Below, in pieces: positions 34,428-64,000 of a stretch of DNA of 64,000 nt (position 1 is its first letter; each line of letters begins with the position of its first letter). The notes under the pieces are model-generated. The model saw nothing but the letters and a program-made list of their open reading frames with translations. It had not been told where the DNA came from and made no database searches. Position numbers and translations under genes: made by a program. The stretch is from Phytophthora sp. 'mugwort'. Taxonomy: Eukaryota > Oomycota > Peronosporomycetes > Peronosporales > Peronosporaceae. The stretch spans positions 620,001-684,000 of the forward strand of contig JAUCEF010000004.1 of NCBI GenBank assembly GCA_033558025.1. Reading direction: 5' to 3'.

Positions 34428-34620
34428 GAGCTGCAGACATTTGCAAGAGCGGGTGTGACCGGATAATGCAGGAGGTGATGCCGAGTGAATTGGGGTGTAC
34501 GAGTATGGCAAGGGTATGATAATGTTATTCGCAGCATCCGTAGCGCTGTTTCGTTTGTGGTTTGTGTGCGGAGTACGATTTTGTGGTGTGAAAAATTGCG
34601 CGCTGCGTTCGGTTGTAAGA

Positions 34621-34692
34621 GCCCCTATAGCTCAGTGGTAGAGCACCCGCTTAGTAAGCGGAAGGTCGGTAGTTCAATCCTGCCTGGGGGCA
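34621..34692 (+). tRNA. tRNA-Thr(AGT), unit 1 (class A)
   Basis: The cloverleaf is complete in 72 bases: acceptor GCCCCTA/TGGGGGC, D arm GCTC-AGTGGTA-GAGC, anticodon arm CCCGC-TTAGTAA-GCGGA (27-43 is a C-A mismatch), five-base variable loop, T arm GGTAG-TTCAATC-CTGCC and discriminator A. Anticodon AGT (inosine after editing) reads ACU/ACC/ACA threonine codons. No CCA is encoded and there is no intron. Internal A and B boxes are intact. The first run of four T after the gene is at 34770-34773, 78 bases downstream. Confidence 0.96.
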
Positions 34693-35366
34693 AACTCCTT
34701 GCAACCGTTCACGTTGGCGCGCTCGTCGTGCCGCTCGTGATCGGGGCGTGCTGTGCGTCGTCTTTGCTCTTTTGGACTTGCTCCCTCCCACTGCCTCGTT
34801 GCCGCTTTAGAAGACTAATGCATGCCCAAGCCACCTCACGGCAGTCGACCGTCTGTGCCGCAACGCTGTGCTGTAGGAATGGCCGGTCAAGCATCGTATA
34901 CAAGCCGCTGAGTTCGCGCAGCGATCATCATCACACTCGGATCCGGGGTTGCCTGGTGGTGCGGCTCAACTTTCTCTGTGCGATCGCATCTCCGTATCAC
35001 TCGCCTGCGGCCAGTCCATCGCGGATGAGTTTACGTTATACTGTGCGGTCGCTGCAAAGTTCCCGTCGCTCGACTGCGGACTTCCTACGAGCGCGTCAAA
35101 TCTTTCTGCTGTAATCACGAATCGTCGCTATCGACTCTGCTAGCGCGTGTGCCGTCCTGGTCAGGCAATAGCCGAGCTGCAGACATTTGCAAGAGCGGGT
35201 GTGACCGGATAATGCAGGAGGTGATGCCGAGTGAATTGGGGTGTACGAGTATGGCAAGGGTATGATAATGTTATTCGCAGCATCCGTAGCGCTGTTTCGT
35301 TTGTGGTTTGTGTGCGGAGTACGATTTTGTGGTGTGAAAAATTGCGCGCTGCGTTCGGTTGTAAGA

Positions 35367-35438
35367 GCCCCTATAGCTCAGTGGTAGAGCACCCGCTTAG
35401 TAAGCGGAAGGTCGGTAGTTCAATCCTGCCTGGGGGCA
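35367..35438 (+). tRNA. tRNA-Thr(AGT), unit 2 (class A)
   Basis: Identical to unit 1. Confidence 0.96.
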
Positions 35439-36112
35439 AACTCCTTGCAACCGTTCACGTTGGCGCGCTCGTCGTGCCGCTCGTGATCGGGGCGTGCTGT
35501 GCGTCGTCTTTGCTCTTTTGGACTTGCTCCCTCCCACTGCCTCGTTGCCGCTTTAGAAGACTAATGCATGCCCAAGCCACCTCACGGCAGTCGACCGTCT
35601 GTGCCGCAACGCTGTGCTGTAGGAATGGCCGGTCAAGCATCGTATACAAGCCGCTGAGTTCGCGCAGCGATCATCATCACACTCGGATCCGGGGTTGCCT
35701 GGTGGTGCGGCTCAACTTTCTCTGTGCGATCGCATCTCCGTATCACTCGCCTGCGGCCAGTCCATCGCGGATGAGTTTACGTTATACTGTGCGGTCGCTG
35801 CAAAGTTCCCGTCGCTCGACTGCGGACTTCCTACGAGCGCGTCAAATCTTTCTGCTGTAATCACGAATCGTCGCTATCGACTCTGCTAGCGCGTGTGCCG
35901 TCCTGGTCAGGCAATAGCCGAGCTGCAGACATTTGCAAGAGCGGGTGTGACCGGATAATGCAGGAGGTGATGCCGAGTGAATTGGGGTGTACGAGTATGG
36001 CAAGGGTATGATAATGTTATTCGCAGCATCCGTAGCGCTGTTTCGTTTGTGGTTTGTGTGCGGAGTACGATTTTGTGGTGTGAAAAATTGCGCGCTGCGT
36101 TCGGTTGTAAGA

Positions 36113-36184
36113 GCCCCTATAGCTCAGTGGTAGAGCACCCGCTTAGTAAGCGGAAGGTCGGTAGTTCAATCCTGCCTGGGGGCA
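36113..36184 (+). tRNA. tRNA-Thr(AGT), unit 3 (class A)
   Basis: Identical to unit 1. Confidence 0.96.
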
Positions 36185-36858
36185 AACTCCTTGCAACCGT
36201 TCACGTTGGCGCGCTCGTCGTGCCGCTCGTGATCGGGGCGTGCTGTGCGTCGTCTTTGCTCTTTTGGACTTGCTCCCTCCCACTGCCTCGTTGCCGCTTT
36301 AGAAGACTAATGCATGCCCAAGCCACCTCACGGCAGTCGACCGTCTGTGCCGCAACGCTGTGCTGTAGGAATGGCCGGTCAAGCATCGTATACAAGCCGC
36401 TGAGTTCGCGCAGCGATCATCATCACACTCGGATCCGGGGTTGCCTGGTGGTGCGGCTCAACTTTCTCTGTGCGATCGCATCTCCGTATCACTCGCCTGC
36501 GGCCAGTCCATCGCGGATGAGTTTACGTTATACTGTGCGGTCGCTGCAAAGTTCCCGTCGCTCGACTGCGGACTTCCTACGAGCGCGTCAAATCTTTCTG
36601 CTGTAATCACGAATCGTCGCTATCGACTCTGCTAGCGCGTGTGCCGTCCTGGTCAGGCAATAGCCGAGCTGCAGACATTTGCAAGAGCGGGTGTGACCGG
36701 ATAATGCAGGAGGTGATGCCGAGTGAATTGGGGTGTACGAGTATGGCAAGGGTATGATAATGTTATTCGCAGCATCCGTAGCGCTGTTTCGTTTGTGGTT
36801 TGTGTGCGGAGTACGATTTTGTGGTGTGAAAAATTGCGCGCTGCGTTCGGTTGTAAGA

Positions 36859-36930
36859 GCCCCTATAGCTCAGTGGTAGAGCACCCGCTTAGTAAGCGGA
36901 AGGTCGGTAGTTCAATCCTGCCTGGGGGCA
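36859..36930 (+). tRNA. tRNA-Thr(AGT), unit 4 (class A)
   Basis: Identical to unit 1. Confidence 0.96.
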
Positions 36931-37604
36931 AACTCCTTGCAACCGTTCACGTTGGCGCGCTCGTCGTGCCGCTCGTGATCGGGGCGTGCTGTGCGTCGTC
37001 TTTGCTCTTTTGGACTTGCTCCCTCCCACTGCCTCGTTGCCGCTTTAGAAGACTAATGCATGCCCAAGCCACCTCACGGCAGTCGACCGTCTGTGCCGCA
37101 ACGCTGTGCTGTAGGAATGGCCGGTCAAGCATCGTATACAAGCCGCTGAGTTCGCGCAGCGATCATCATCACACTCGGATCCGGGGTTGCCTGGTGGTGC
37201 GGCTCAACTTTCTCTGTGCGATCGCATCTCCGTATCACTCGCCTGCGGCCAGTCCATCGCGGATGAGTTTACGTTATACTGTGCGGTCGCTGCAAAGTTC
37301 CCGTCGCTCGACTGCGGACTTCCTACGAGCGCGTCAAATCTTTCTGCTGTAATCACGAATCGTCGCTATCGACTCTGCTAGCGCGTGTGCCGTCCTGGTC
37401 AGGCAATAGCCGAGCTGCAGACATTTGCAAGAGCGGGTGTGACCGGATAATGCAGGAGGTGATGCCGAGTGAATTGGGGTGTACGAGTATGGCAAGGGTA
37501 TGATAATGTTATTCGCAGCATCCGTAGCGCTGTTTCGTTTGTGGTTTGTGTGCGGAGTACGATTTTGTGGTGTGAAAAATTGCGCGCTGCGTTCGGTTGT
37601 AAGA

Positions 37605-37676
37605 GCCCCTATAGCTCAGTGGTAGAGCACCCGCTTAGTAAGCGGAAGGTCGGTAGTTCAATCCTGCCTGGGGGCA
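37605..37676 (+). tRNA. tRNA-Thr(AGT), unit 5 (class A)
   Basis: Identical to unit 1. Confidence 0.96.
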
Positions 37677-38350
37677 AACTCCTTGCAACCGTTCACGTTG
37701 GCGCGCTCGTCGTGCCGCTCGTGATCGGGGCGTGCTGTGCGTCGTCTTTGCTCTTTTGGACTTGCTCCCTCCCACTGCCTCGTTGCCGCTTTAGAAGACT
37801 AATGCATGCCCAAGCCACCTCACGGCAGTCGACCGTCTGTGCCGCAACGCTGTGCTGTAGGAATGGCCGGTCAAGCATCGTATACAAGCCGCTGAGTTCG
37901 CGCAGCGATCATCATCACACTCGGATCCGGGGTTGCCTGGTGGTGCGGCTCAACTTTCTCTGTGCGATCGCATCTCCGTATCACTCGCCTGCGGCCAGTC
38001 CATCGCGGATGAGTTTACGTTATACTGTGCGGTCGCTGCAAAGTTCCCGTCGCTCGACTGCGGACTTCCTACGAGCGCGTCAAATCTTTCTGCTGTAATC
38101 ACGAATCGTCGCTATCGACTCTGCTAGCGCGTGTGCCGTCCTGGTCAGGCAATAGCCGAGCTGCAGACATTTGCAAGAGCGGGTGTGACCGGATAATGCA
38201 GGAGGTGATGCCGAGTGAATTGGGGTGTACGAGTATGGCAAGGGTATGATAATGTTATTCGCAGCATCCGTAGCGCTGTTTCGTTTGTGGTTTGTGTGCG
38301 GAGTACGATTTTGTGGTGTGAAAAATTGCGCGCTGCGTTCGGTTGTAAGA

Positions 38351-38422
38351 GCCCCTATAGCTCAGTGGTAGAGCACCCGCTTAGTAAGCGGAAGGTCGGT
38401 AGTTCAATCCTGCCTGGGGGCA
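38351..38422 (+). tRNA. tRNA-Thr(AGT), unit 6 (class A)
   Basis: Identical to unit 1. Confidence 0.96.
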
Positions 38423-39096
38423 AACTCCTTGCAACCGTTCACGTTGGCGCGCTCGTCGTGCCGCTCGTGATCGGGGCGTGCTGTGCGTCGTCTTTGCTCT
38501 TTTGGACTTGCTCCCTCCCACTGCCTCGTTGCCGCTTTAGAAGACTAATGCATGCCCAAGCCACCTCACGGCAGTCGACCGTCTGTGCCGCAACGCTGTG
38601 CTGTAGGAATGGCCGGTCAAGCATCGTATACAAGCCGCTGAGTTCGCGCAGCGATCATCATCACACTCGGATCCGGGGTTGCCTGGTGGTGCGGCTCAAC
38701 TTTCTCTGTGCGATCGCATCTCCGTATCACTCGCCTGCGGCCAGTCCATCGCGGATGAGTTTACGTTATACTGTGCGGTCGCTGCAAAGTTCCCGTCGCT
38801 CGACTGCGGACTTCCTACGAGCGCGTCAAATCTTTCTGCTGTAATCACGAATCGTCGCTATCGACTCTGCTAGCGCGTGTGCCGTCCTGGTCAGGCAATA
38901 GCCGAGCTGCAGACATTTGCAAGAGCGGGTGTGACCGGATAATGCAGGAGGTGATGCCGAGTGAATTGGGGTGTACGAGTATGGCAAGGGTATGATAATG
39001 TTATTCGCAGCATCCGTAGCGCTGTTTCGTTTGTGGTTTGTGTGCGGAGTACGATTTTGTGGTGTGAAAAATTGCGCGCTGCGTTCGGTTGTAAGA

Positions 39097-39168
39097 GCCC
39101 CTATAGCTCAGTGGTAGAGCACCCGCTTAGTAAGCGGAAGGTCGGTAGTTCAATCCTGCCTGGGGGCA
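39097..39168 (+). tRNA. tRNA-Thr(AGT), unit 7 (class A)
   Basis: Identical to unit 1. Confidence 0.96.
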
Positions 39169-39842
39169 AACTCCTTGCAACCGTTCACGTTGGCGCGCTC
39201 GTCGTGCCGCTCGTGATCGGGGCGTGCTGTGCGTCGTCTTTGCTCTTTTGGACTTGCTCCCTCCCACTGCCTCGTTGCCGCTTTAGAAGACTAATGCATG
39301 CCCAAGCCACCTCACGGCAGTCGACCGTCTGTGCCGCAACGCTGTGCTGTAGGAATGGCCGGTCAAGCATCGTATACAAGCCGCTGAGTTCGCGCAGCGA
39401 TCATCATCACACTCGGATCCGGGGTTGCCTGGTGGTGCGGCTCAACTTTCTCTGTGCGATCGCATCTCCGTATCACTCGCCTGCGGCCAGTCCATCGCGG
39501 ATGAGTTTACGTTATACTGTGCGGTCGCTGCAAAGTTCCCGTCGCTCGACTGCGGACTTCCTACGAGCGCGTCAAATCTTTCTGCTGTAATCACGAATCG
39601 TCGCTATCGACTCTGCTAGCGCGTGTGCCGTCCTGGTCAGGCAATAGCCGAGCTGCAGACATTTGCAAGAGCGGGTGTGACCGGATAATGCAGGAGGTGA
39701 TGCCGAGTGAATTGGGGTGTACGAGTATGGCAAGGGTATGATAATGTTATTCGCAGCATCCGTAGCGCTGTTTCGTTTGTGGTTTGTGTGCGGAGTACGA
39801 TTTTGTGGTGTGAAAAATTGCGCGCTGCGTTCGGTTGTAAGA

Positions 39843-39914
39843 GCCCCTATAGCTCAGTGGTAGAGCACCCGCTTAGTAAGCGGAAGGTCGGTAGTTCAAT
39901 CCTGCCTGGGGGCA
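39843..39914 (+). tRNA. tRNA-Thr(AGT), unit 8 (class A)
   Basis: Identical to unit 1. Confidence 0.96.
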
Positions 39915-40588
39915 AACTCCTTGCAACCGTTCACGTTGGCGCGCTCGTCGTGCCGCTCGTGATCGGGGCGTGCTGTGCGTCGTCTTTGCTCTTTTGGACT
40001 TGCTCCCTCCCACTGCCTCGTTGCCGCTTTAGAAGACTAATGCATGCCCAAGCCACCTCACGGCAGTCGACCGTCTGTGCCGCAACGCTGTGCTGTAGGA
40101 ATGGCCGGTCAAGCATCGTATACAAGCCGCTGAGTTCGCGCAGCGATCATCATCACACTCGGATCCGGGGTTGCCTGGTGGTGCGGCTCAACTTTCTCTG
40201 TGCGATCGCATCTCCGTATCACTCGCCTGCGGCCAGTCCATCGCGGATGAGTTTACGTTATACTGTGCGGTCGCTGCAAAGTTCCCGTCGCTCGACTGCG
40301 GACTTCCTACGAGCGCGTCAAATCTTTCTGCTGTAATCACGAATCGTCGCTATCGACTCTGCTAGCGCGTGTGCCGTCCTGGTCAGGCAATAGCCGAGCT
40401 GCAGACATTTGCAAGAGCGGGTGTGACCGGATAATGCAGGAGGTGATGCCGAGTGAATTGGGGTGTACGAGTATGGCAAGGGTATGATAATGTTATTCGC
40501 AGCATCCGTAGCGCTGTTTCGTTTGTGGTTTGTGTGCGGAGTACGATTTTGTGGTGTGAAAAATTGCGCGCTGCGTTCGGTTGTAAGA

Positions 40589-40660
40589 GCCCCTATAGCT
40601 CAGTGGTAGAGCACCCGCTTAGTAAGCGGAAGGTCGGTAGTTCAATCCTGCCTGGGGGCA
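40589..40660 (+). tRNA. tRNA-Thr(AGT), unit 9 (class A)
   Basis: Identical to unit 1. Confidence 0.96.
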
Positions 40661-41334
40661 AACTCCTTGCAACCGTTCACGTTGGCGCGCTCGTCGTGCC
40701 GCTCGTGATCGGGGCGTGCTGTGCGTCGTCTTTGCTCTTTTGGACTTGCTCCCTCCCACTGCCTCGTTGCCGCTTTAGAAGACTAATGCATGCCCAAGCC
40801 ACCTCACGGCAGTCGACCGTCTGTGCCGCAACGCTGTGCTGTAGGAATGGCCGGTCAAGCATCGTATACAAGCCGCTGAGTTCGCGCAGCGATCATCATC
40901 ACACTCGGATCCGGGGTTGCCTGGTGGTGCGGCTCAACTTTCTCTGTGCGATCGCATCTCCGTATCACTCGCCTGCGGCCAGTCCATCGCGGATGAGTTT
41001 ACGTTATACTGTGCGGTCGCTGCAAAGTTCCCGTCGCTCGACTGCGGACTTCCTACGAGCGCGTCAAATCTTTCTGCTGTAATCACGAATCGTCGCTATC
41101 GACTCTGCTAGCGCGTGTGCCGTCCTGGTCAGGCAATAGCCGAGCTGCAGACATTTGCAAGAGCGGGTGTGACCGGATAATGCAGGAGGTGATGCCGAGT
41201 GAATTGGGGTGTACGAGTATGGCAAGGGTATGATAATGTTATTCGCAGCATCCGTAGCGCTGTTTCGTTTGTGGTTTGTGTGCGGAGTACGATTTTGTGG
41301 TGTGAAAAATTGCGCGCTGCGTTCGGTTGTAAGA

Positions 41335-41406
41335 GCCCCTATAGCTCAGTGGTAGAGCACCCGCTTAGTAAGCGGAAGGTCGGTAGTTCAATCCTGCCTG
41401 GGGGCA
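41335..41406 (+). tRNA. tRNA-Thr(AGT), unit 10 (class A)
   Basis: Identical to unit 1. Confidence 0.96.
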
Positions 41407-42080
41407 AACTCCTTGCAACCGTTCACGTTGGCGCGCTCGTCGTGCCGCTCGTGATCGGGGCGTGCTGTGCGTCGTCTTTGCTCTTTTGGACTTGCTCCCT
41501 CCCACTGCCTCGTTGCCGCTTTAGAAGACTAATGCATGCCCAAGCCACCTCACGGCAGTCGACCGTCTGTGCCGCAACGCTGTGCTGTAGGAATGGCCGG
41601 TCAAGCATCGTATACAAGCCGCTGAGTTCGCGCAGCGATCATCATCACACTCGGATCCGGGGTTGCCTGGTGGTGCGGCTCAACTTTCTCTGTGCGATCG
41701 CATCTCCGTATCACTCGCCTGCGGCCAGTCCATCGCGGATGAGTTTACGTTATACTGTGCGGTCGCTGCAAAGTTCCCGTCGCTCGACTGCGGACTTCCT
41801 ACGAGCGCGTCAAATCTTTCTGCTGTAATCACGAATCGTCGCTATCGACTCTGCTAGCGCGTGTGCCGTCCTGGTCAGGCAATAGCCGAGCTGCAGACAT
41901 TTGCAAGAGCGGGTGTGACCGGATAATGCAGGAGGTGATGCCGAGTGAATTGGGGTGTACGAGTATGGCAAGGGTATGATAATGTTATTCGCAGCATCCG
42001 TAGCGCTGTTTCGTTTGTGGTTTGTGTGCGGAGTACGATTTTGTGGTGTGAAAAATTGCGCGCTGCGTTCGGTTGTAAGA

Positions 42081-42152
42081 GCCCCTATAGCTCAGTGGTA
42101 GAGCACCCGCTTAGTAAGCGGAAGGTCGGTAGTTCAATCCTGCCTGGGGGCA
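42081..42152 (+). tRNA. tRNA-Thr(AGT), unit 11 (class A)
   Basis: Identical to unit 1; last of the uniform class A run. Confidence 0.96.
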
Positions 42153-49540: not shown

Positions 49541-49612
49541 GCCCCTATAGCTCAGTGGTAGAGCACCCGCTTAGTAAGCGGAAGGTCGGTAGTTCAATCC
49601 TGCCTGGGGGTA
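49541..49612 (+). tRNA. tRNA-Thr(AGT) with C72 to T, unit 21 (class D)
   Basis: The last acceptor-stem base is T, so the first pair becomes G1-U72 instead of G1-C72. Otherwise identical to unit 1. Confidence 0.95.
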
Positions 49613-50358: not shown

Positions 50359-51032
50359 AACTCCTTGCAACCGTTCACGTTGGCGCGCTCGTCGTGCCGC
50401 TCGTGATCGGGGCGTGCTGTGCGTCGTCTTTGCTCTTTTGGACTTGCTCCCTCCCACTGCCTCGTTGCCGCTTTAGAAGACTAATGCATGCCCAAGCCAC
50501 CTCACGGCAGTCGACCGTCTGTGCCGCAACGCTGTGCTGTAGGAATGGCCGGTCAAGCATCGTATACAAGCCGCTGAGTTCGCGCAGCGATCATCATCAC
50601 ACTCGGATCCGGGGTTGCCTGGTGGTGCGGCTCAACTTTCTCTGTGCGATCGCATCTCCGTATCACTCGCCTGCGGCCAGTCCATCGCGGATGAGTTTAC
50701 GTTATACTGTGCGGTCGCTGCAAAGTTCCCGTCGCTCGACTGCGGACTTCCTACGAGCGCGTCAAATCTTTCTGCTGTAATCACGAATCGTCGCTATCGA
50801 CTCTGCTAGCGCGTGTGCCGTCCTGGTCAGGCAATAGCCGAGCTGCAGACATTTGCAAGAGCGGGTGTGACCGGATAATGCAGGAGGTGATGCCGAGTGA
50901 ATTGGGGTGTACGAGTATGGCAAGGGTATGATAATGTTATTCGCAGCGTCCGTAGCGCTGTTTCGTTTGTGGTTTGTGTGCGGAGTAAGATTTTGTGGTG
51001 TGAAAAATTGCGCGCTGCGTTCGGTTGTAAGA

Positions 51033-51104
51033 GCCCCTATAGCTCAGTGGTAGAGCACCCGCTTAGTAAGCGGAAGGTCGGTAGTTCAATCCTGCCTGGG
51101 GGCA
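51033..51104 (+). tRNA. tRNA-Thr(AGT), unit 23 (class B)
   Basis: tRNA identical to unit 1; first unit of higher-order repeat copy 1. Confidence 0.96.
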
Positions 51105-51778
51105 AACTCCTTGCAACCGTTCACGTTGGCGCGCTCGTCGTGCCGCTCGTGATCGGGGCGTGCTGTGCGTCGTCTTTGCTCTTTTGGACTTGCTCCCTCC
51201 CACTGCCTCGTTGCCGCTTTAGAAGACTAATGCATGCCCAAGCCACCTCACGGCAGTCGACCGTCTGTGCCGCAACGCTGTGCTGTAGGAATGGCCGGTC
51301 AAGCATCGTATACAAGCCGCTGAGTTCGCGCAGCGATCATCATCACACTCGGATCCGGGGTTGCCTGGTGGTGCGGCTCAACTTTCTCTGTGCGATCGCT
51401 TCTCCGTATCACTCGCCTGCGGCCAGTCCATCGCGGATGAGTTTACGTTATACTGTGCGGTCGCTGCAAAGTTCCCGTCGCTCGACTGCGGACTTCCTCC
51501 GAGCGCGTCAAATCTTTCTGCTGTAATCACGAATCGTCGCTATCGACTCTGCTAGCGCGTGTGCCGTCCTGGTCAGGCAATAGCCGAGCTGCAGACATTT
51601 GCAAGAGCGGGTGTGACCGGATAATGCAGGAGGTGATGCCGAGTGAATTGGGGTGTACGAGTATGGCAAGGGTATGATAATGTTATTCGCAGCATCCGTA
51701 GCGCTGTTTCGTTTGTGGTTTGTGTGCGGAGTACGATTTTGTGGTATGAAAAATTGCGCGCTGCGTTCGGTTGTAAGA

Positions 51779-51850
51779 GCCCCTATAGCTCAGTGGTAGA
51801 GCACCCGCTTAGTAAGCGGAAGGTCGGTAGTTCAATCCTGCCTGGGGGCA
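51779..51850 (+). tRNA. tRNA-Thr(AGT), unit 24 (class C)
   Basis: tRNA identical to unit 1; class C flank. Confidence 0.96.
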
Positions 51851-52524
51851 AACTCCTTGCAACCGTTCACGTTGGCGCGCTCGTCGTGCCGCTCGTGATC
51901 GGGGCGTGCTGTGCGTCGTCTTTGCTCTTTTGGACTTGCTCCCTCCCACTGCCTCGTTGCCGCTTTAGAAGACTAATGCATGCCCAAGCCACCTCACGGC
52001 AGTCGACCGTCTGTGCCGCAACGCTGTGCTGTAGGAATGGCCGGTCAAGCATCGTATACAAGCCGCTGAGTTCGCGCAGCGATCATCATCACACTCGGAT
52101 CCGGGGTTGCCTGGTGGTGCGGCTCAACTTTCTCTGTGCGATCGCATCTCCGTATCACTCGCCTGCGGCCAGTCCATCGCGGATGAGTTTACGTTATACT
52201 GTGCGGTCGCTGCAAAGTTCCCGTCGCTCGACTGCGGACTTCCTACGAGCGCGTCAAATCTTTCTGCTGTAATCACGAATCGTCGCTATCGACTCTGCTA
52301 GCGCGTGTGCCGTCCTGGTCAGGCAATAGCCGAGCTGCAGACATTTGCAAGAGCGGGTGTGACCGGATAATGCAGGAGGTGATGCCGAGTGAATTGGGGT
52401 GTACGAGTATGGCAAGGGTATGATAATGTTATTCGCAGCGTCCGTAGCGCTGTTTCGTTTGTGGTTTGTGTGCGGAGTAAGATTTTGTGGTGTGAAAAAT
52501 TGCGCGCTGCGTTCGGTTGTAAGA

Positions 52525-52596
52525 GCCCCTATAGCTCAGTGGTAGAGCACCCGCTTAGTAAGCGGAAGGTCGGTAGTTCAATCCTGCCTGGGGGTA
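52525..52596 (+). tRNA. tRNA-Thr(AGT) with C72 to T, unit 25 (class D)
   Basis: G1-U72 acceptor variant as in unit 21. Confidence 0.95.
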
Positions 52597-53270
52597 AACT
52601 CCTTGCAACCGTTCACGTTGGCGCGCTCGTCGTGCCGCTCGTGATCGGGGCGTGCTGTGCGTCGTCTTTGCTCTTTTGGACTTGCTCCCTCCCACTGCCT
52701 CGTTGCCGCTTTAGAAGACTAATGCATGCCCAAGCCACCTCACGGCAGTCGACCGTCTGTGCCGCAACGCTGTGCTGTAGGAATGGCCGGTCAAGCATCG
52801 TATACAAGCCGCTGAGTTCGCGCAGCGATCATCATCACACTCGGATCCGGGGTTGCCTGGTGGTGCGGCTCAACTTTCTCTGTGCGATCGCATCTCCGTA
52901 TCACTCGCCTGCGGCCAGTCCATCGCGGATGAGTTTACGTTATACTGTGCGGTCGCTGCAAAGTTCCCGTCGCTCGACTGCGGACTTCCTACGAGCGCGT
53001 CAAATCTTTCTGCTGTAATCACGAATCGTCGCTATCGACTCTGCTAGCGCGTGTGCCGTCCTGGTCAGGCAATAGCCGAGCTGCAGACATTTGCAAGAGC
53101 GGGTGTGACCGGATAATGCAGGAGGTGATGCCGAGTGAATTGGGGTGTACGAGTATGGCAAGGGTATGATAATGTTATTCGCAGCGTCCGTAGCGCTGTT
53201 TCGTTTGTGGTTTGTGTGCGGAGTAAGATTTTGTGGTGTGAAAAATTGCGCGCTGCGTTCGGTTGTAAGA

Positions 53271-53342
53271 GCCCCTATAGCTCAGTGGTAGAGCACCCGC
53301 TTAGTAAGCGGAAGGTCGGTAGTTCAATCCTGCCTGGGGGCA
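53271..53342 (+). tRNA. tRNA-Thr(AGT), unit 26 (class B)
   Basis: tRNA identical to unit 1; class B flanks. Confidence 0.96.
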
Positions 53343-54016
53343 AACTCCTTGCAACCGTTCACGTTGGCGCGCTCGTCGTGCCGCTCGTGATCGGGGCGTG
53401 CTGTGCGTCGTCTTTGCTCTTTTGGACTTGCTCCCTCCCACTGCCTCGTTGCCGCTTTAGAAGACTAATGCATGCCCAAGCCACCTCACGGCAGTCGACC
53501 GTCTGTGCCGCAACGCTGTGCTGTAGGAATGGCCGGTCAAGCATCGTATACAAGCCGCTGAGTTCGCGCAGCGATCATCATCACACTCGGATCCGGGGTT
53601 GCCTGGTGGTGCGGCTCAACTTTCTCTGTGCGATCGCTTCTCCGTATCACTCGCCTGCGGCCAGTCCATCGCGGATGAGTTTACGTTATACTGTGCGGTC
53701 GCTGCAAAGTTCCCGTCGCTCGACTGCGGACTTCCTCCGAGCGCGTCAAATCTTTCTGCTGTAATCACGAATCGTCGCTATCGACTCTGCTAGCGCGTGT
53801 GCCGTCCTGGTCAGGCAATAGCCGAGCTGCAGACATTTGCAAGAGCGGGTGTGACCGGATAATGCAGGAGGTGATGCCGAGTGAATTGGGGTGTACGAGT
53901 ATGGCAAGGGTATGATAATGTTATTCGCAGCATCCGTAGCGCTGTTTCGTTTGTGGTTTGTGTGCGGAGTACGATTTTGTGGTATGAAAAATTGCGCGCT
54001 GCGTTCGGTTGTAAGA

Positions 54017-54088
54017 GCCCCTATAGCTCAGTGGTAGAGCACCCGCTTAGTAAGCGGAAGGTCGGTAGTTCAATCCTGCCTGGGGGCA
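54017..54088 (+). tRNA. tRNA-Thr(AGT), unit 27 (class C)
   Basis: tRNA identical to unit 1; class C flank. Confidence 0.96.
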
Positions 54089-54762
54089 AACTCCTTGCAA
54101 CCGTTCACGTTGGCGCGCTCGTCGTGCCGCTCGTGATCGGGGCGTGCTGTGCGTCGTCTTTGCTCTTTTGGACTTGCTCCCTCCCACTGCCTCGTTGCCG
54201 CTTTAGAAGACTAATGCATGCCCAAGCCACCTCACGGCAGTCGACCGTCTGTGCCGCAACGCTGTGCTGTAGGAATGGCCGGTCAAGCATCGTATACAAG
54301 CCGCTGAGTTCGCGCAGCGATCATCATCACACTCGGATCCGGGGTTGCCTGGTGGTGCGGCTCAACTTTCTCTGTGCGATCGCATCTCCGTATCACTCGC
54401 CTGCGGCCAGTCCATCGCGGATGAGTTTACGTTATACTGTGCGGTCGCTGCAAAGTTCCCGTCGCTCGACTGCGGACTTCCTACGAGCGCGTCAAATCTT
54501 TCTGCTGTAATCACGAATCGTCGCTATCGACTCTGCTAGCGCGTGTGCCGTCCTGGTCAGGCAATAGCCGAGCTGCAGACATTTGCAAGAGCGGGTGTGA
54601 CCGGATAATGCAGGAGGTGATGCCGAGTGAATTGGGGTGTACGAGTATGGCAAGGGTATGATAATGTTATTCGCAGCGTCCGTAGCGCTGTTTCGTTTGT
54701 GGTTTGTGTGCGGAGTAAGATTTTGTGGTGTGAAAAATTGCGCGCTGCGTTCGGTTGTAAGA

Positions 54763-54834
54763 GCCCCTATAGCTCAGTGGTAGAGCACCCGCTTAGTAAG
54801 CGGAAGGTCGGTAGTTCAATCCTGCCTGGGGGTA
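54763..54834 (+). tRNA. tRNA-Thr(AGT) with C72 to T, unit 28 (class D)
   Basis: G1-U72 acceptor variant as in unit 21. Confidence 0.95.
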
Positions 54835-55508
54835 AACTCCTTGCAACCGTTCACGTTGGCGCGCTCGTCGTGCCGCTCGTGATCGGGGCGTGCTGTGCGT
54901 CGTCTTTGCTCTTTTGGACTTGCTCCCTCCCACTGCCTCGTTGCCGCTTTAGAAGACTAATGCATGCCCAAGCCACCTCACGGCAGTCGACCGTCTGTGC
55001 CGCAACGCTGTGCTGTAGGAATGGCCGGTCAAGCATCGTATACAAGCCGCTGAGTTCGCGCAGCGATCATCATCACACTCGGATCCGGGGTTGCCTGGTG
55101 GTGCGGCTCAACTTTCTCTGTGCGATCGCATCTCCGTATCACTCGCCTGCGGCCAGTCCATCGCGGATGAGTTTACGTTATACTGTGCGGTCGCTGCAAA
55201 GTTCCCGTCGCTCGACTGCGGACTTCCTACGAGCGCGTCAAATCTTTCTGCTGTAATCACGAATCGTCGCTATCGACTCTGCTAGCGCGTGTGCCGTCCT
55301 GGTCAGGCAATAGCCGAGCTGCAGACATTTGCAAGAGCGGGTGTGACCGGATAATGCAGGAGGTGATGCCGAGTGAATTGGGGTGTACGAGTATGGCAAG
55401 GGTATGATAATGTTATTCGCAGCGTCCGTAGCGCTGTTTCGTTTGTGGTTTGTGTGCGGAGTAAGATTTTGTGGTGTGAAAAATTGCGCGCTGCGTTCGG
55501 TTGTAAGA

Positions 55509-55580
55509 GCCCCTATAGCTCAGTGGTAGAGCACCCGCTTAGTAAGCGGAAGGTCGGTAGTTCAATCCTGCCTGGGGGCA
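55509..55580 (+). tRNA. tRNA-Thr(AGT), unit 29 (class D')
   Basis: tRNA identical to unit 1; class D' flanks. Confidence 0.96.
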
Positions 55581-56254
55581 AACTCCTTGCAACCGTTCAC
55601 GTTGGCGCGCTCGTCGTGCCGCTCGTGATCGGGGCGTGCTGTGCGTCGTCTTTGCTCTTTTGGACTTGCTCCCTCCCACTGCCTCGTTGCCGCTTTAGAA
55701 GACTAATGCATGCCCAAGCCACCTCACGGCAGTCGACCGTCTGTGCCGCAACGCTGTGCTGTAGGAATGGCCGGTCAAGCATCGTATACAAGCCGCTGAG
55801 TTCGCGCAGCGATCATCATCACACTCGGATCCGGGGTTGCCTGGTGGTGCGGCTCAACTTTCTCTGTGCGATCGCATCTCCGTATCACTCGCCTGCGGCC
55901 AGTCCATCGCGGATGAGTTTACGTTATACTGTGCGGTCGCTGCAAAGTTCCCGTCGCTCGACTGCGGACTTCCTACGAGCGCGTCAAATCTTTCTGCTGT
56001 AATCACGAATCGTCGCTATCGACTCTGCTAGCGCGTGTGCCGTCCTGGTCAGGCAATAGCCGAGCTGCAGACATTTGCAAGAGCGGGTGTGACCGGATAA
56101 TGCAGGAGGTGATGCCGAGTGAATTGGGGTGTACGAGTATGGCAAGGGTATGATAATGTTATTCGCAGCATCCGTAGCGCTGTTTCGTTTGTGGTTTGTG
56201 TGCGGAGTAAGATTTTGTGGTGTGAAAAATTGCGCGCTGCGTTCGGTTGTAAGA

Positions 56255-56326
56255 GCCCCTATAGCTCAGTGGTAGAGCACCCGCTTAGTAAGCGGAAGGT
56301 CGGTAGTTCAATCCTGCCTGGGGGCA
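56255..56326 (+). tRNA. tRNA-Thr(AGT), unit 30 (class E)
   Basis: tRNA identical to unit 1; class E flanks. Confidence 0.96.
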
Positions 56327-57000
56327 AACTCCTTGCAACCGTTCACGTTGGCGCGCTCGTCGTGCCGCTCGTGATCGGGGCGTGCTGTGCGTCGTCTTTG
56401 CTCTTTTGGACTTGCTCCCTCCCACTGCCTCGTTGCCGCTTTAGAAGACTAATGCATGCCCAAGCCACCTCACGGCAGTCGACCGTCTGTGCCGCAACGC
56501 TGTGCTGTAGGAATGGCCGGTCAAGCATCGTATACAAGCCGCTGAGTTCGCGCAGCGATCATCATCACACTCGGATCCGGGGTTGCCTGGTGGTGCGGCT
56601 CAACTTTCTCTGTGCGATCGCATCTCCGTATCACTCGCCTGCGGCCAGTCCATCGCGGATGAGTTTACGTTATACTGTGCGGTCGCTGCAAAGTTCCCGT
56701 CGCTCGACTGCGGACTTCCTACGAGCGCGTCAAATCTTTCTGCTGTAATCACGAATCGTCGCTATCGACTCTGCTAGCGCGTGTGCCGTCCTGGTCAGGC
56801 AATAGCCGAGCTGCAGACATTTGCAAGAGCGGGTGTGACCGGATAATGCAGGAGGTGATGCCGAGTGAATTGGGGTGTACGAGTATGGCAAGGGTATGAT
56901 AATGTTATTCGCAGCATCCGTAGCGCTGTTTCGTTTGTGGTTTGTGTGCGGAGTAAGATTTTGTGGTGTGAAAAATTGCGCGCTGCGTTCGGTTGTAAGA

Positions 57001-57072
57001 GCCCCTATAGCTCAGTGGTAGAGCACCCGCTTAGTAAGCGGAAGGTCGGTAGTTCAATCCTGCCTGGGGGCA
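57001..57072 (+). tRNA. tRNA-Thr(AGT), unit 31 (class E)
   Basis: tRNA identical to unit 1; last unit of higher-order repeat copy 1. Confidence 0.96.
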
Positions 57073-57746
57073 AACTCCTTGCAACCGTTCACGTTGGCGC
57101 GCTCGTCGTGCCGCTCGTGATCGGGGCGTGCTGTGCGTCGTCTTTGCTCTTTTGGACTTGCTCCCTCCCACTGCCTCGTTGCCGCTTTAGAAGACTAATG
57201 CATGCCCAAGCCACCTCACGGCAGTCGACCGTCTGTGCCGCAACGCTGTGCTGTAGGAATGGCCGGTCAAGCATCGTATACAAGCCGCTGAGTTCGCGCA
57301 GCGATCATCATCACACTCGGATCCGGGGTTGCCTGGTGGTGCGGCTCAACTTTCTCTGTGCGATCGCATCTCCGTATCACTCGCCTGCGGCCAGTCCATC
57401 GCGGATGAGTTTACGTTATACTGTGCGGTCGCTGCAAAGTTCCCGTCGCTCGACTGCGGACTTCCTACGAGCGCGTCAAATCTTTCTGCTGTAATCACGA
57501 ATCGTCGCTATCGACTCTGCTAGCGCGTGTGCCGTCCTGGTCAGGCAATAGCCGAGCTGCAGACATTTGCAAGAGCGGGTGTGACCGGATAATGCAGGAG
57601 GTGATGCCGAGTGAATTGGGGTGTACGAGTATGGCAAGGGTATGATAATGTTATTCGCAGCGTCCGTAGCGCTGTTTCGTTTGTGGTTTGTGTGCGGAGT
57701 AAGATTTTGTGGTGTGAAAAATTGCGCGCTGCGTTCGGTTGTAAGA

Positions 57747-57818
57747 GCCCCTATAGCTCAGTGGTAGAGCACCCGCTTAGTAAGCGGAAGGTCGGTAGTT
57801 CAATCCTGCCTGGGGGCA
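57747..57818 (+). tRNA. tRNA-Thr(AGT), unit 32 (class B)
   Basis: tRNA identical to unit 1; first unit of higher-order repeat copy 2. Confidence 0.96.
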
Positions 57819-58492
57819 AACTCCTTGCAACCGTTCACGTTGGCGCGCTCGTCGTGCCGCTCGTGATCGGGGCGTGCTGTGCGTCGTCTTTGCTCTTTTG
57901 GACTTGCTCCCTCCCACTGCCTCGTTGCCGCTTTAGAAGACTAATGCATGCCCAAGCCACCTCACGGCAGTCGACCGTCTGTGCCGCAACGCTGTGCTGT
58001 AGGAATGGCCGGTCAAGCATCGTATACAAGCCGCTGAGTTCGCGCAGCGATCATCATCACACTCGGATCCGGGGTTGCCTGGTGGTGCGGCTCAACTTTC
58101 TCTGTGCGATCGCTTCTCCGTATCACTCGCCTGCGGCCAGTCCATCGCGGATGAGTTTACGTTATACTGTGCGGTCGCTGCAAAGTTCCCGTCGCTCGAC
58201 TGCGGACTTCCTCCGAGCGCGTCAAATCTTTCTGCTGTAATCACGAATCGTCGCTATCGACTCTGCTAGCGCGTGTGCCGTCCTGGTCAGGCAATAGCCG
58301 AGCTGCAGACATTTGCAAGAGCGGGTGTGACCGGATAATGCAGGAGGTGATGCCGAGTGAATTGGGGTGTACGAGTATGGCAAGGGTATGATAATGTTAT
58401 TCGCAGCATCCGTAGCGCTGTTTCGTTTGTGGTTTGTGTGCGGAGTACGATTTTGTGGTATGAAAAATTGCGCGCTGCGTTCGGTTGTAAGA

Positions 58493-58564
58493 GCCCCTAT
58501 AGCTCAGTGGTAGAGCACCCGCTTAGTAAGCGGAAGGTCGGTAGTTCAATCCTGCCTGGGGGCA
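58493..58564 (+). tRNA. tRNA-Thr(AGT), unit 33 (class C)
   Basis: tRNA identical to unit 1; class C flank. Confidence 0.96.
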
Positions 58565-59238
58565 AACTCCTTGCAACCGTTCACGTTGGCGCGCTCGTCG
58601 TGCCGCTCGTGATCGGGGCGTGCTGTGCGTCGTCTTTGCTCTTTTGGACTTGCTCCCTCCCACTGCCTCGTTGCCGCTTTAGAAGACTAATGCATGCCCA
58701 AGCCACCTCACGGCAGTCGACCGTCTGTGCCGCAACGCTGTGCTGTAGGAATGGCCGGTCAAGCATCGTATACAAGCCGCTGAGTTCGCGCAGCGATCAT
58801 CATCACACTCGGATCCGGGGTTGCCTGGTGGTGCGGCTCAACTTTCTCTGTGCGATCGCATCTCCGTATCACTCGCCTGCGGCCAGTCCATCGCGGATGA
58901 GTTTACGTTATACTGTGCGGTCGCTGCAAAGTTCCCGTCGCTCGACTGCGGACTTCCTACGAGCGCGTCAAATCTTTCTGCTGTAATCACGAATCGTCGC
59001 TATCGACTCTGCTAGCGCGTGTGCCGTCCTGGTCAGGCAATAGCCGAGCTGCAGACATTTGCAAGAGCGGGTGTGACCGGATAATGCAGGAGGTGATGCC
59101 GAGTGAATTGGGGTGTACGAGTATGGCAAGGGTATGATAATGTTATTCGCAGCGTCCGTAGCGCTGTTTCGTTTGTGGTTTGTGTGCGGAGTAAGATTTT
59201 GTGGTGTGAAAAATTGCGCGCTGCGTTCGGTTGTAAGA

Positions 59239-59310
59239 GCCCCTATAGCTCAGTGGTAGAGCACCCGCTTAGTAAGCGGAAGGTCGGTAGTTCAATCCTG
59301 CCTGGGGGTA
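59239..59310 (+). tRNA. tRNA-Thr(AGT) with C72 to T, unit 34 (class D)
   Basis: G1-U72 acceptor variant as in unit 21. Confidence 0.95.
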
Positions 59311-59984
59311 AACTCCTTGCAACCGTTCACGTTGGCGCGCTCGTCGTGCCGCTCGTGATCGGGGCGTGCTGTGCGTCGTCTTTGCTCTTTTGGACTTGCT
59401 CCCTCCCACTGCCTCGTTGCCGCTTTAGAAGACTAATGCATGCCCAAGCCACCTCACGGCAGTCGACCGTCTGTGCCGCAACGCTGTGCTGTAGGAATGG
59501 CCGGTCAAGCATCGTATACAAGCCGCTGAGTTCGCGCAGCGATCATCATCACACTCGGATCCGGGGTTGCCTGGTGGTGCGGCTCAACTTTCTCTGTGCG
59601 ATCGCATCTCCGTATCACTCGCCTGCGGCCAGTCCATCGCGGATGAGTTTACGTTATACTGTGCGGTCGCTGCAAAGTTCCCGTCGCTCGACTGCGGACT
59701 TCCTACGAGCGCGTCAAATCTTTCTGCTGTAATCACGAATCGTCGCTATCGACTCTGCTAGCGCGTGTGCCGTCCTGGTCAGGCAATAGCCGAGCTGCAG
59801 ACATTTGCAAGAGCGGGTGTGACCGGATAATGCAGGAGGTGATGCCGAGTGAATTGGGGTGTACGAGTATGGCAAGGGTATGATAATGTTATTCGCAGCG
59901 TCCGTAGCGCTGTTTCGTTTGTGGTTTGTGTGCGGAGTAAGATTTTGTGGTGTGAAAAATTGCGCGCTGCGTTCGGTTGTAAGA

Positions 59985-60056
59985 GCCCCTATAGCTCAGT
60001 GGTAGAGCACCCGCTTAGTAAGCGGAAGGTCGGTAGTTCAATCCTGCCTGGGGGCA
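59985..60056 (+). tRNA. tRNA-Thr(AGT), unit 35 (class B)
   Basis: tRNA identical to unit 1; class B flanks. Confidence 0.96.
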
Positions 60057-60730
60057 AACTCCTTGCAACCGTTCACGTTGGCGCGCTCGTCGTGCCGCTC
60101 GTGATCGGGGCGTGCTGTGCGTCGTCTTTGCTCTTTTGGACTTGCTCCCTCCCACTGCCTCGTTGCCGCTTTAGAAGACTAATGCATGCCCAAGCCACCT
60201 CACGGCAGTCGACCGTCTGTGCCGCAACGCTGTGCTGTAGGAATGGCCGGTCAAGCATCGTATACAAGCCGCTGAGTTCGCGCAGCGATCATCATCACAC
60301 TCGGATCCGGGGTTGCCTGGTGGTGCGGCTCAACTTTCTCTGTGCGATCGCTTCTCCGTATCACTCGCCTGCGGCCAGTCCATCGCGGATGAGTTTACGT
60401 TATACTGTGCGGTCGCTGCAAAGTTCCCGTCGCTCGACTGCGGACTTCCTCCGAGCGCGTCAAATCTTTCTGCTGTAATCACGAATCGTCGCTATCGACT
60501 CTGCTAGCGCGTGTGCCGTCCTGGTCAGGCAATAGCCGAGCTGCAGACATTTGCAAGAGCGGGTGTGACCGGATAATGCAGGAGGTGATGCCGAGTGAAT
60601 TGGGGTGTACGAGTATGGCAAGGGTATGATAATGTTATTCGCAGCATCCGTAGCGCTGTTTCGTTTGTGGTTTGTGTGCGGAGTACGATTTTGTGGTATG
60701 AAAAATTGCGCGCTGCGTTCGGTTGTAAGA

Positions 60731-60802
60731 GCCCCTATAGCTCAGTGGTAGAGCACCCGCTTAGTAAGCGGAAGGTCGGTAGTTCAATCCTGCCTGGGGG
60801 CA
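60731..60802 (+). tRNA. tRNA-Thr(AGT), unit 36 (class C)
   Basis: tRNA identical to unit 1; class C flank. Confidence 0.96.
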
Positions 60803-61476
60803 AACTCCTTGCAACCGTTCACGTTGGCGCGCTCGTCGTGCCGCTCGTGATCGGGGCGTGCTGTGCGTCGTCTTTGCTCTTTTGGACTTGCTCCCTCCCA
60901 CTGCCTCGTTGCCGCTTTAGAAGACTAATGCATGCCCAAGCCACCTCACGGCAGTCGACCGTCTGTGCCGCAACGCTGTGCTGTAGGAATGGCCGGTCAA
61001 GCATCGTATACAAGCCGCTGAGTTCGCGCAGCGATCATCATCACACTCGGATCCGGGGTTGCCTGGTGGTGCGGCTCAACTTTCTCTGTGCGATCGCATC
61101 TCCGTATCACTCGCCTGCGGCCAGTCCATCGCGGATGAGTTTACGTTATACTGTGCGGTCGCTGCAAAGTTCCCGTCGCTCGACTGCGGACTTCCTACGA
61201 GCGCGTCAAATCTTTCTGCTGTAATCACGAATCGTCGCTATCGACTCTGCTAGCGCGTGTGCCGTCCTGGTCAGGCAATAGCCGAGCTGCAGACATTTGC
61301 AAGAGCGGGTGTGACCGGATAATGCAGGAGGTGATGCCGAGTGAATTGGGGTGTACGAGTATGGCAAGGGTATGATAATGTTATTCGCAGCGTCCGTAGC
61401 GCTGTTTCGTTTGTGGTTTGTGTGCGGAGTAAGATTTTGTGGTGTGAAAAATTGCGCGCTGCGTTCGGTTGTAAGA

Positions 61477-61548
61477 GCCCCTATAGCTCAGTGGTAGAGC
61501 ACCCGCTTAGTAAGCGGAAGGTCGGTAGTTCAATCCTGCCTGGGGGTA
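61477..61548 (+). tRNA. tRNA-Thr(AGT) with C72 to T, unit 37 (class D)
   Basis: G1-U72 acceptor variant as in unit 21. Confidence 0.95.
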
Positions 61549-62222
61549 AACTCCTTGCAACCGTTCACGTTGGCGCGCTCGTCGTGCCGCTCGTGATCGG
61601 GGCGTGCTGTGCGTCGTCTTTGCTCTTTTGGACTTGCTCCCTCCCACTGCCTCGTTGCCGCTTTAGAAGACTAATGCATGCCCAAGCCACCTCACGGCAG
61701 TCGACCGTCTGTGCCGCAACGCTGTGCTGTAGGAATGGCCGGTCAAGCATCGTATACAAGCCGCTGAGTTCGCGCAGCGATCATCATCACACTCGGATCC
61801 GGGGTTGCCTGGTGGTGCGGCTCAACTTTCTCTGTGCGATCGCATCTCCGTATCACTCGCCTGCGGCCAGTCCATCGCGGATGAGTTTACGTTATACTGT
61901 GCGGTCGCTGCAAAGTTCCCGTCGCTCGACTGCGGACTTCCTACGAGCGCGTCAAATCTTTCTGCTGTAATCACGAATCGTCGCTATCGACTCTGCTAGC
62001 GCGTGTGCCGTCCTGGTCAGGCAATAGCCGAGCTGCAGACATTTGCAAGAGCGGGTGTGACCGGATAATGCAGGAGGTGATGCCGAGTGAATTGGGGTGT
62101 ACGAGTATGGCAAGGGTATGATAATGTTATTCGCAGCGTCCGTAGCGCTGTTTCGTTTGTGGTTTGTGTGCGGAGTAAGATTTTGTGGTGTGAAAAATTG
62201 CGCGCTGCGTTCGGTTGTAAGA

Positions 62223-62294
62223 GCCCCTATAGCTCAGTGGTAGAGCACCCGCTTAGTAAGCGGAAGGTCGGTAGTTCAATCCTGCCTGGGGGCA
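62223..62294 (+). tRNA. tRNA-Thr(AGT), unit 38 (class D')
   Basis: tRNA identical to unit 1; class D' flanks. Confidence 0.96.
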
Positions 62295-62968
62295 AACTCC
62301 TTGCAACCGTTCACGTTGGCGCGCTCGTCGTGCCGCTCGTGATCGGGGCGTGCTGTGCGTCGTCTTTGCTCTTTTGGACTTGCTCCCTCCCACTGCCTCG
62401 TTGCCGCTTTAGAAGACTAATGCATGCCCAAGCCACCTCACGGCAGTCGACCGTCTGTGCCGCAACGCTGTGCTGTAGGAATGGCCGGTCAAGCATCGTA
62501 TACAAGCCGCTGAGTTCGCGCAGCGATCATCATCACACTCGGATCCGGGGTTGCCTGGTGGTGCGGCTCAACTTTCTCTGTGCGATCGCATCTCCGTATC
62601 ACTCGCCTGCGGCCAGTCCATCGCGGATGAGTTTACGTTATACTGTGCGGTCGCTGCAAAGTTCCCGTCGCTCGACTGCGGACTTCCTACGAGCGCGTCA
62701 AATCTTTCTGCTGTAATCACGAATCGTCGCTATCGACTCTGCTAGCGCGTGTGCCGTCCTGGTCAGGCAATAGCCGAGCTGCAGACATTTGCAAGAGCGG
62801 GTGTGACCGGATAATGCAGGAGGTGATGCCGAGTGAATTGGGGTGTACGAGTATGGCAAGGGTATGATAATGTTATTCGCAGCATCCGTAGCGCTGTTTC
62901 GTTTGTGGTTTGTGTGCGGAGTAAGATTTTGTGGTGTGAAAAATTGCGCGCTGCGTTCGGTTGTAAGA

Positions 62969-63040
62969 GCCCCTATAGCTCAGTGGTAGAGCACCCGCTT
63001 AGTAAGCGGAAGGTCGGTAGTTCAATCCTGCCTGGGGGCA
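62969..63040 (+). tRNA. tRNA-Thr(AGT), unit 39 (class E)
   Basis: tRNA identical to unit 1; class E flanks. Confidence 0.96.
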
Positions 63041-63714
63041 AACTCCTTGCAACCGTTCACGTTGGCGCGCTCGTCGTGCCGCTCGTGATCGGGGCGTGCT
63101 GTGCGTCGTCTTTGCTCTTTTGGACTTGCTCCCTCCCACTGCCTCGTTGCCGCTTTAGAAGACTAATGCATGCCCAAGCCACCTCACGGCAGTCGACCGT
63201 CTGTGCCGCAACGCTGTGCTGTAGGAATGGCCGGTCAAGCATCGTATACAAGCCGCTGAGTTCGCGCAGCGATCATCATCACACTCGGATCCGGGGTTGC
63301 CTGGTGGTGCGGCTCAACTTTCTCTGTGCGATCGCATCTCCGTATCACTCGCCTGCGGCCAGTCCATCGCGGATGAGTTTACGTTATACTGTGCGGTCGC
63401 TGCAAAGTTCCCGTCGCTCGACTGCGGACTTCCTACGAGCGCGTCAAATCTTTCTGCTGTAATCACGAATCGTCGCTATCGACTCTGCTAGCGCGTGTGC
63501 CGTCCTGGTCAGGCAATAGCCGAGCTGCAGACATTTGCAAGAGCGGGTGTGACCGGATAATGCAGGAGGTGATGCCGAGTGAATTGGGGTGTACGAGTAT
63601 GGCAAGGGTATGATAATGTTATTCGCAGCATCCGTAGCGCTGTTTCGTTTGTGGTTTGTGTGCGGAGTAAGATTTTGTGGTGTGAAAAATTGCGCGCTGC
63701 GTTCGGTTGTAAGA

Positions 63715-63786
63715 GCCCCTATAGCTCAGTGGTAGAGCACCCGCTTAGTAAGCGGAAGGTCGGTAGTTCAATCCTGCCTGGGGGCA
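63715..63786 (+). tRNA. tRNA-Thr(AGT), unit 40 (class E, unit cut by window end)
   Basis: tRNA identical to unit 1; the two distal variable sites lie beyond the window. Confidence 0.95.
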
Positions 63787-64000
63787 AACTCCTTGCAACC
63801 GTTCACGTTGGCGCGCTCGTCGTGCCGCTCGTGATCGGGGCGTGCTGTGCGTCGTCTTTGCTCTTTTGGACTTGCTCCCTCCCACTGCCTCGTTGCCGCT
63901 TTAGAAGACTAATGCATGCCCAAGCCACCTCACGGCAGTCGACCGTCTGTGCCGCAACGCTGTGCTGTAGGAATGGCCGGTCAAGCATCGTATACAAGCC

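What the first reader, a model, noticed from the sequence alone, without database searches (positions are those of the whole stretch)
34428..64000. A 40-copy tandem array of single-tRNA units
A 746-bp unit holding one tRNA-Thr(AGT) gene is repeated at least 39.6 times head-to-tail with no indels. tRNA genes are usually dispersed; satellite-like tRNA arrays are best known from Entamoeba. The spacer is as conserved as the tRNA, so the whole unit is being homogenised. Possible roles are threonine tRNA dosage, a Pol III-driven chromatin boundary or a structural chromosome element; these are inferences.
Basis: partly seen in the sequence, partly recalled or inferred. Interest (0 to 1): 0.92.

Follow-up and report, generated by a model that had tools for sequence, protein, structure and literature searches.

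The report
Tandem threonine tRNA gene array, Phytophthora
A long row of near-identical repeats, each carrying one threonine tRNA gene, is really there and is longer than first seen, but rows of this kind have already been described in a Phytophthora species and occur several times in this same genome.

Summary
Confirmed: from 34428 to the window end a 746-bp unit with one tRNA-Thr(AGT) gene repeats head-to-tail without indels. The window cuts the array: the contig holds 77 full units plus 146 bp, 57.6 kb. Units are 99.8% identical; 10 of 746 sites vary, per base as often in the tRNA as in the spacer. A nine-unit block is duplicated exactly. A genome search with a 32-base stretch of the tRNA found 77 exact matches, all in the array, and one diverged partial copy.

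Not supported: that it is an oddity comparable mainly to Entamoeba. The same genome shows at least five more tRNA arrays, and a 2022 paper reports that P. infestans tRNA genes lie in such arrays, about two-thirds of the families on one chromosome (PMC9584435). Best reading: an ordinary Phytophthora tRNA gene array, probably grown and kept uniform by unequal exchange. Expression was not tested, and no reads were available to confirm the copy number. One loose end: unrelated array spacers share a G-over-C strand skew just upstream of the tRNAs.

The parts
34428..64000 (+). Tandem array of 746-bp units, cut by the window end; 39 full units and 479 bp lie in the window. In the source contig there are 77 full units and a 146-bp partial unit, ending at C4:712015
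   Evidence: Period scan and unit comparison; tRNA calls beyond the window
34621..34692 (+). First tRNA-Thr(AGT) gene, 72 bp, no intron; positions 194-265 of the unit; repeated every 746 bp, 40 times in the window
   Evidence: ARAGORN, Rfam RF00005 63.1 bits
34693..35173 (+). 3' spacer part of the first unit; the first run of four T lies 78 bases after the tRNA
   Evidence: Sequence; distance measured on the second unit, which is identical
49541..49612 (+). One of five tRNA copies with a C-to-T change at the base paired with G1 (G-C becomes G-U); the others start at 52525, 54763, 59239 and 61477
   Evidence: Lower Rfam score 60.8; site C264T in the unit
50840..64000 (+). Exact tandem duplication of a nine-unit block (6,714 bp each: 50840-57553 and 57554-64267 in the window frame); the last 267 bases lie beyond the window in the contig
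   Evidence: Haplotype string and letter-by-letter comparison
32698..34149 (-). ORF next to the left edge of the array with a weak match to the reverse transcriptase zinc-binding domain; taken for a retroelement remnant (inference)
   Evidence: List of ORFs; Pfam zf-RVT 20.4 bits, below the curated cut-off of 27.5

Best explanation
This is a genuine nuclear tandem array of tRNA-Thr(AGT) genes in the layout described for P. infestans: one unit (tRNA plus spacer) repeated at one locus. The tRNA is probably transcribed by Pol III from its internal promoter and supplies the inosine-34 tRNA-Thr that reads ACU and ACC. The array probably grew, and is kept uniform, by unequal exchange or gene conversion between misaligned units, sometimes of several units at once. 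Shown here: the array, its length in the assembly, its uniformity, the block duplication, and the lack of other exact copies. Inferred: transcription, function and the exchange mechanism.
For: 77 exact matches in one array and one 2-mismatch copy elsewhere in an 86.26-Mb genome. The tRNAs in the window score 60.8 or 63.1 bits against a gathering score of 29. Spacer and tRNA are equally uniform. Variants occur in groups and in a nine-unit block duplicated exactly, as expected from multi-unit exchange. At least five other arrays exist in the same genome with different tRNAs and without detectable spacer homology. PMC9584435 describes the same layout in P. infestans, with tRNA numbers checked there by read depth, and proposes unequal crossing-over.
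Against: No RNA or chromatin data were available, so expression is not shown. The nearest T4 run is 78 bases after the tRNA, so a canonical nearby Pol III terminator is lacking; how oomycete Pol III terminates was not tested. Threonine codon use in 10 window ORFs favours ACG (139 of 312), which by general decoding rules this tRNA does not read; ACT plus ACC are 115 of 312.
Confidence: 0.86

Rival explanations
1. The array exists, but the copy number or the order of units is wrong in the assembly; the exact nine-unit duplication could be an assembly loop.
For: The nine-unit block is duplicated without a single difference, and 20 consecutive units (42-61, counted from 0) carry no variant, so reads shorter than such stretches could not be placed. 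PMC9584435 warns of collapsed and misplaced tRNA arrays.
Against: Both edges run into other sequence inside one 3.93-Mb contig, and the variants in the interior (units 11-41) and towards the right edge (62-74) differ. Two other arrays in the assembly are of similar size. None of this replaces reads.
Confidence: 0.2
2. Most copies are silent and the array is mainly a satellite-like block, with only some units transcribed, as in the Arabidopsis Ser-Tyr-Tyr cluster.
For: Silencing of a tandem tRNA cluster in most tissues is reported in Arabidopsis (PMC12308677, abstract). For Entamoeba the authors think it likely that many array copies are transcriptionally inactive (PMC2652664, passages).
Against: No other exact gene for this tRNA was found with the pattern used, so at least some units must be active if the tRNA is needed. 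Copy number alone says nothing about activity.
Confidence: 0.3
3. The array is a chromatin boundary or a structural chromosome element, and tRNA supply is secondary.
For: PMC9584435 raises the idea for Phytophthora arrays and cites yeast tRNA genes (discussion passage). A human tRNA tandem repeat has been proposed as a boundary (PMC4041453, search listing only).
Against: Six arrays show no shared spacer sequence, so no common structural element is seen. No chromatin data were available.
Confidence: 0.08
4. The units are a tRNA-derived mobile element (SINE-like) amplified in tandem.
For: One dispersed copy on C7 starts four bases before the tRNA and covers 335 bp of the unit at 89% identity.
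Against: 77 of 78 pattern matches lie at one locus; the C7 copy shows no poly-A tail, and in the flanks compared no direct repeat longer than 7 bases. The spacer search scored only 40 of 79 candidates, all 40 in the array, so more diverged relics are not excluded.
Confidence: 0.02

Closest known systems
Tandem tRNA gene arrays of Phytophthora infestans (PMC9584435)
   Same: Arrays of one gene with a spacer, about two-thirds of the families on one chromosome, near-identical units with a few grouped variants; tRNA-Cys(GCA) has 271 copies of a 513-nt unit.
   Different: Different genome, tRNA and unit (746 bp, Thr(AGT), 77 units). In the section read, threonine is named only as the CGT anticodon in a three-gene unit.
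tRNA gene arrays of Entamoeba (PMC2652664)
   Same: Tandem, largely uniform units; a single-gene unit [H-GTG] is named for E. equi (passages).
   Different: E. histolytica and E. dispar have short tandem repeats between genes; none was found in this unit. Unrelated lineage.
Arabidopsis Ser-Tyr-Tyr and tRNA-Cys clusters (PMC12308677, PMC10701932)
   Same: Tandemly repeated tRNA units; the tRNA-Cys cluster has one gene per 0.4-kb unit (abstracts).
   Different: Clusters in a genome whose tRNA genes are mostly dispersed (PMC10701932 abstract); in the genome studied here arrays recur for at least six unit types.

Membership tests
Tandem tRNA arrays of the P. infestans kind | Head-to-tail repeats of the same tRNA gene with spacer | tested here: met
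   77 units of 746 bp
Tandem tRNA arrays of the P. infestans kind | Family confined to one chromosome (about two-thirds of P. infestans families) | tested here: met
   77 of 78 pattern matches in the array; the other is a diverged partial copy on C7. A Thr(AGT) gene with more than 3 mismatches in the pattern would be missed
Tandem tRNA arrays of the P. infestans kind | Near-identical units with variants in groups, often near an edge | tested here: met
   Variants in units 11-41 (interior) and 62-74 (towards the right edge), counted from 0; 99.77% mean pairwise identity
Tandem tRNA arrays of the P. infestans kind | Other tRNA families of the genome arrayed too | tested here: met
   Ala-His, Tyr, Leu, Gly(TCC) with Gly(CCC), and Gly(GCC) arrays
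Tandem tRNA arrays of the P. infestans kind | Copy number confirmed by read depth | not testable with these tools
   No reads are held
Entamoeba tRNA arrays | Short tandem repeats between genes (E. histolytica, E. dispar) | tested here: not met
   Tandem Repeats Finder at minimum score 50 lists none inside the array
Entamoeba tRNA arrays | Almost all tRNA genes in arrays | tested here: inconclusive
   Six arrays seen; dispersed T-arm matches also exist; no full tRNA scan was possible
tRNA-derived SINE | Many dispersed copies with a tail and target duplications | tested here: not met
   One dispersed partial copy found, no poly-A tail, no direct repeat over 7 bases in the flanks compared

The most novel reading that the evidence does not exclude
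Phytophthora tRNA arrays share a hidden strand signature: about 200 bp of unrelated spacer upstream of each array tRNA is strongly richer in G than in C. This could favour R-loops or mark conflict between Pol III and replication forks, and the resulting breaks or stalled forks could drive the unequal exchange that builds and homogenises the arrays.
Probability: 0.12. Interest if true: 0.6.

Novelty: new member of a known kind. Interest (0 to 1): 0.3.

Why it matters
It shows in one place that the exact copies of one tRNA gene of a eukaryote can sit in a single homogenised array, so that their number could change in one exchange. The kind is already in print for P. infestans. The arrays are useful material for studying concerted evolution and for testing whether tRNA gene dosage or array position matters.

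Tried and rejected
Rejected: chance repeat (77 units, no indel). Rejected: SINE family. Rejected: one shared spacer for all arrays; blastn at E 0.01 found only matches between tRNA parts among the six unit types. Not pursued: unit length as a multiple of nucleosome spacing. Lengths here are 746, about 750, 779, about 742 or 723, 1456 and 372 or 341, and those quoted for P. infestans are 513 and 850; I saw no clean rule and did not test it.

A whole-genome tRNA census failed as planned: the Rfam tRNA search scored only 63 of 9,329 candidates, 62 of them with the same score of 66.2. The four of these loci that I scanned carry the same Asn-Ser-Met-Pro-Met-Gly run. I take these for organelle contigs, which is inference. 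I used T-arm patterns instead; these count words, not genes, and may include organelle copies and relics. A D-arm pattern gave only 2 matches. The searches with the tRNA and with the 3' spacer as DNA were capped: 40 of 116 and 40 of 79 candidates scored, all in the array. ARAGORN without the intron option found no gene in the Tyr array stretches; with it the gene was found.

No other Phytophthora genome could be searched here, so conservation of this array between species is untested. The species of the window was not identified. A search for papers on mutation around tRNA genes listed nothing that I used.
Full report
What was claimed and what is there. This is right: 40 genes, all on the + strand, exactly 746 bp apart, with period-746 identity from 34428 on and no indel. 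The window lies at C4:620001-684000 of an 86.26-Mb, 154-contig assembly. Fetching the next 40 kb of the contig shows 13, 14 and 10 more tRNA genes in the first three 10-kb stretches and none in the fourth. The array has 77 full units, C4:654428-711869, and ends in 146 bp of a 78th, 57.6 kb in all.

Uniformity. Over 77 units 10 of 746 sites vary; 36 of 77 units equal the consensus, and there are 13 haplotypes. Mean pairwise identity is 99.77%. One variable site is in the 72-bp tRNA and nine in the 674-bp spacer, Fisher p = 1, so within the array nothing shields the tRNA more than the spacer. The tRNA variant replaces the G1-C pair by G-U in 5 of 77 copies. Variants sit in two zones, units 11-41 and 62-74 (counted from 0). 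Units 22-30 and 31-39 have the same order of haplotypes and are identical letter for letter over 6,714 bp. In a shuffle test of haplotype order in units 11-41, 101 of 5,000 shuffles reached the observed best lag match. This fits exchange of several units at once; an assembly loop would look the same and cannot be excluded without reads.

Where else the gene occurs. A 32-base pattern from the anticodon arm to the T-arm, with up to 3 mismatches, gave 78 matches: 77 exact ones in the array and one with 2 mismatches on C7. The C7 copy is a 335-bp piece of the unit, 89% identical, starting four bases before the tRNA, with no poly-A tail and no direct repeat longer than 7 bases in the flanks compared. 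It still scores 44.5 bits as a tRNA. A tRNA-Thr(AGT) gene that differs more than this from the array copy would have been missed. Searches with the tRNA and with the spacer as DNA scored only 40 of 116 and 40 of 79 candidates.

Other arrays in the same genome. T-arm patterns gave 78, 100, 374 and 1,535 matches, against 4, 3, 1 and 10 for the reversed control pattern. The first two lists are complete; of the last two only the first 100 places are shown. Regular arrays stand out. On C13, 59 of 78 matches, mostly at 779 bp: Ala(AGC)-His(GTG) pairs; three stretches scanned hold 24 His and 22 Ala genes, two units lacking the Ala. On C11, 87 of 100 matches, mostly at 750 bp: Tyr(GTA) with a 31-base intron in the unit examined. 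On C3, 88 of the 100 listed, mostly at 742 or 723 bp: the three genes scanned are Leu(CAG). On C1, 28 of the 100 listed, spaced 409 or about 1,047 bp: the four genes scanned alternate Gly(TCC) and Gly(CCC). On C7, 52 of the 100 listed, mostly at 372 or 341 bp: the four genes scanned are Gly(GCC). No spacer similarity between these units or to the Thr unit was found at E 0.01. The Thr array is thus one of several.

What is in print. PMC9584435 (section 9 read in full; passages elsewhere) reports 7,519 tRNA genes on the P. [quoted passage not shown] It reports about two-thirds of families on one chromosome, near-identical units with grouped variants in single-gene arrays, read-depth support, and growth by unequal crossing-over. 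It also counts tRNA genes, not layouts, in other oomycete long-read assemblies. P. agathidicida has 24 to 548 tRNA genes per chromosome (PMC9667082, passage). I found no description of this particular Thr(AGT) array in three searches on Phytophthora or oomycete tRNA genes; I opened only the two papers named here from those lists, and the species was not identified, so this is weak.

How it probably works. The tRNA is a complete cloverleaf with an AGT anticodon. From general knowledge, A34 becomes inosine and the tRNA reads ACU and ACC. In 10 window ORFs, ACT plus ACC make up 115 of 312 threonine codons and ACG 139, so the array is not aimed at the commonest codon in this small sample. The arrays listed to the end have comparable counts, Thr 77, Tyr 87 and Ala-His 59, which speaks against a threonine-specific demand; the T-arm totals of 374 and 1,535 suggest that other families are larger in sum. 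Expression, Pol III use and the exchange mechanism are inferred.

Loose ends. I compared 200 bp on either side of seven array tRNA positions from six arrays, one unit per array and the Ala-His pair as one block. GC skew is +0.26 to +0.56 upstream and -0.30 to +0.07 downstream. Of 20,000 random positions in six stretches outside the arrays of the same genome, 2.0% reach +0.26 upstream. The step from upstream to downstream is beyond the 98th percentile in six of seven cases; Gly(GCC) is not unusual (10.5% of random positions). The lone C7 copy, whose upstream sequence is not from the unit, has +0.06. I chose the 200-bp span after seeing the units, so this is a lead only. First T4 runs lie 1 to 167 bases after the array tRNAs, 78 for Thr.

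Verdict. The interpretation as an exceptional, Entamoeba-like oddity does not hold: this is a new member of a described kind, the tandem tRNA array of Phytophthora.

Noticed in passing
G000: C1, C3, C7, C11, C13 (loci L045-L047, L065-L067, L081-L083): Five more tRNA arrays: Ala-His (779 bp), Tyr with a 31-base intron (750 bp), Leu(CAG) (about 742 bp), Gly(TCC) with Gly(CCC), and Gly(GCC) (372 or 341 bp).
   Followed up: partly
Upstream 200 bp of array tRNAs, e.g. window 35167-35366: Excess of G over C upstream of each of seven array tRNA positions although the spacers are unrelated; near zero or reversed downstream.
   Followed up: partly
L044:4451-4785 (C7:2417451-2417785): Lone diverged 335-bp piece of the Thr unit, starting four bases before the tRNA; possibly a retro-copied read-through transcript, possibly a plain duplication.
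   Followed up: partly
L011 from about 8015 to 8290, and L012:2796-3539 (-): Right of the array lie what look like a broken piece and, some kb on, a longer copy of an E(z)-type SET-domain gene; the name is from my own reading of the translations, not from a family search.
   Followed up: no
window 17181-18281 (+) and 29053-30162 (-): Two inverted copies of a type II NADH dehydrogenase-like gene about 11 kb apart (Pfam Pyr_redox_2 and NDH2_C).
   Followed up: no
L014, L015, L016, L028 and other small contigs C15-C115: 62 of the 63 scored tRNA candidates have one score; the four loci scanned share an Asn-Ser-Met-Pro-Met-Gly run. Possibly many leftover organelle contigs in the assembly.
   Followed up: no
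L048:1192-1261 (-) and 9768-9837 (+): Two inverted tRNA-His-like genes 8.5 kb apart on C6, outside the Ala-His array.
   Followed up: no
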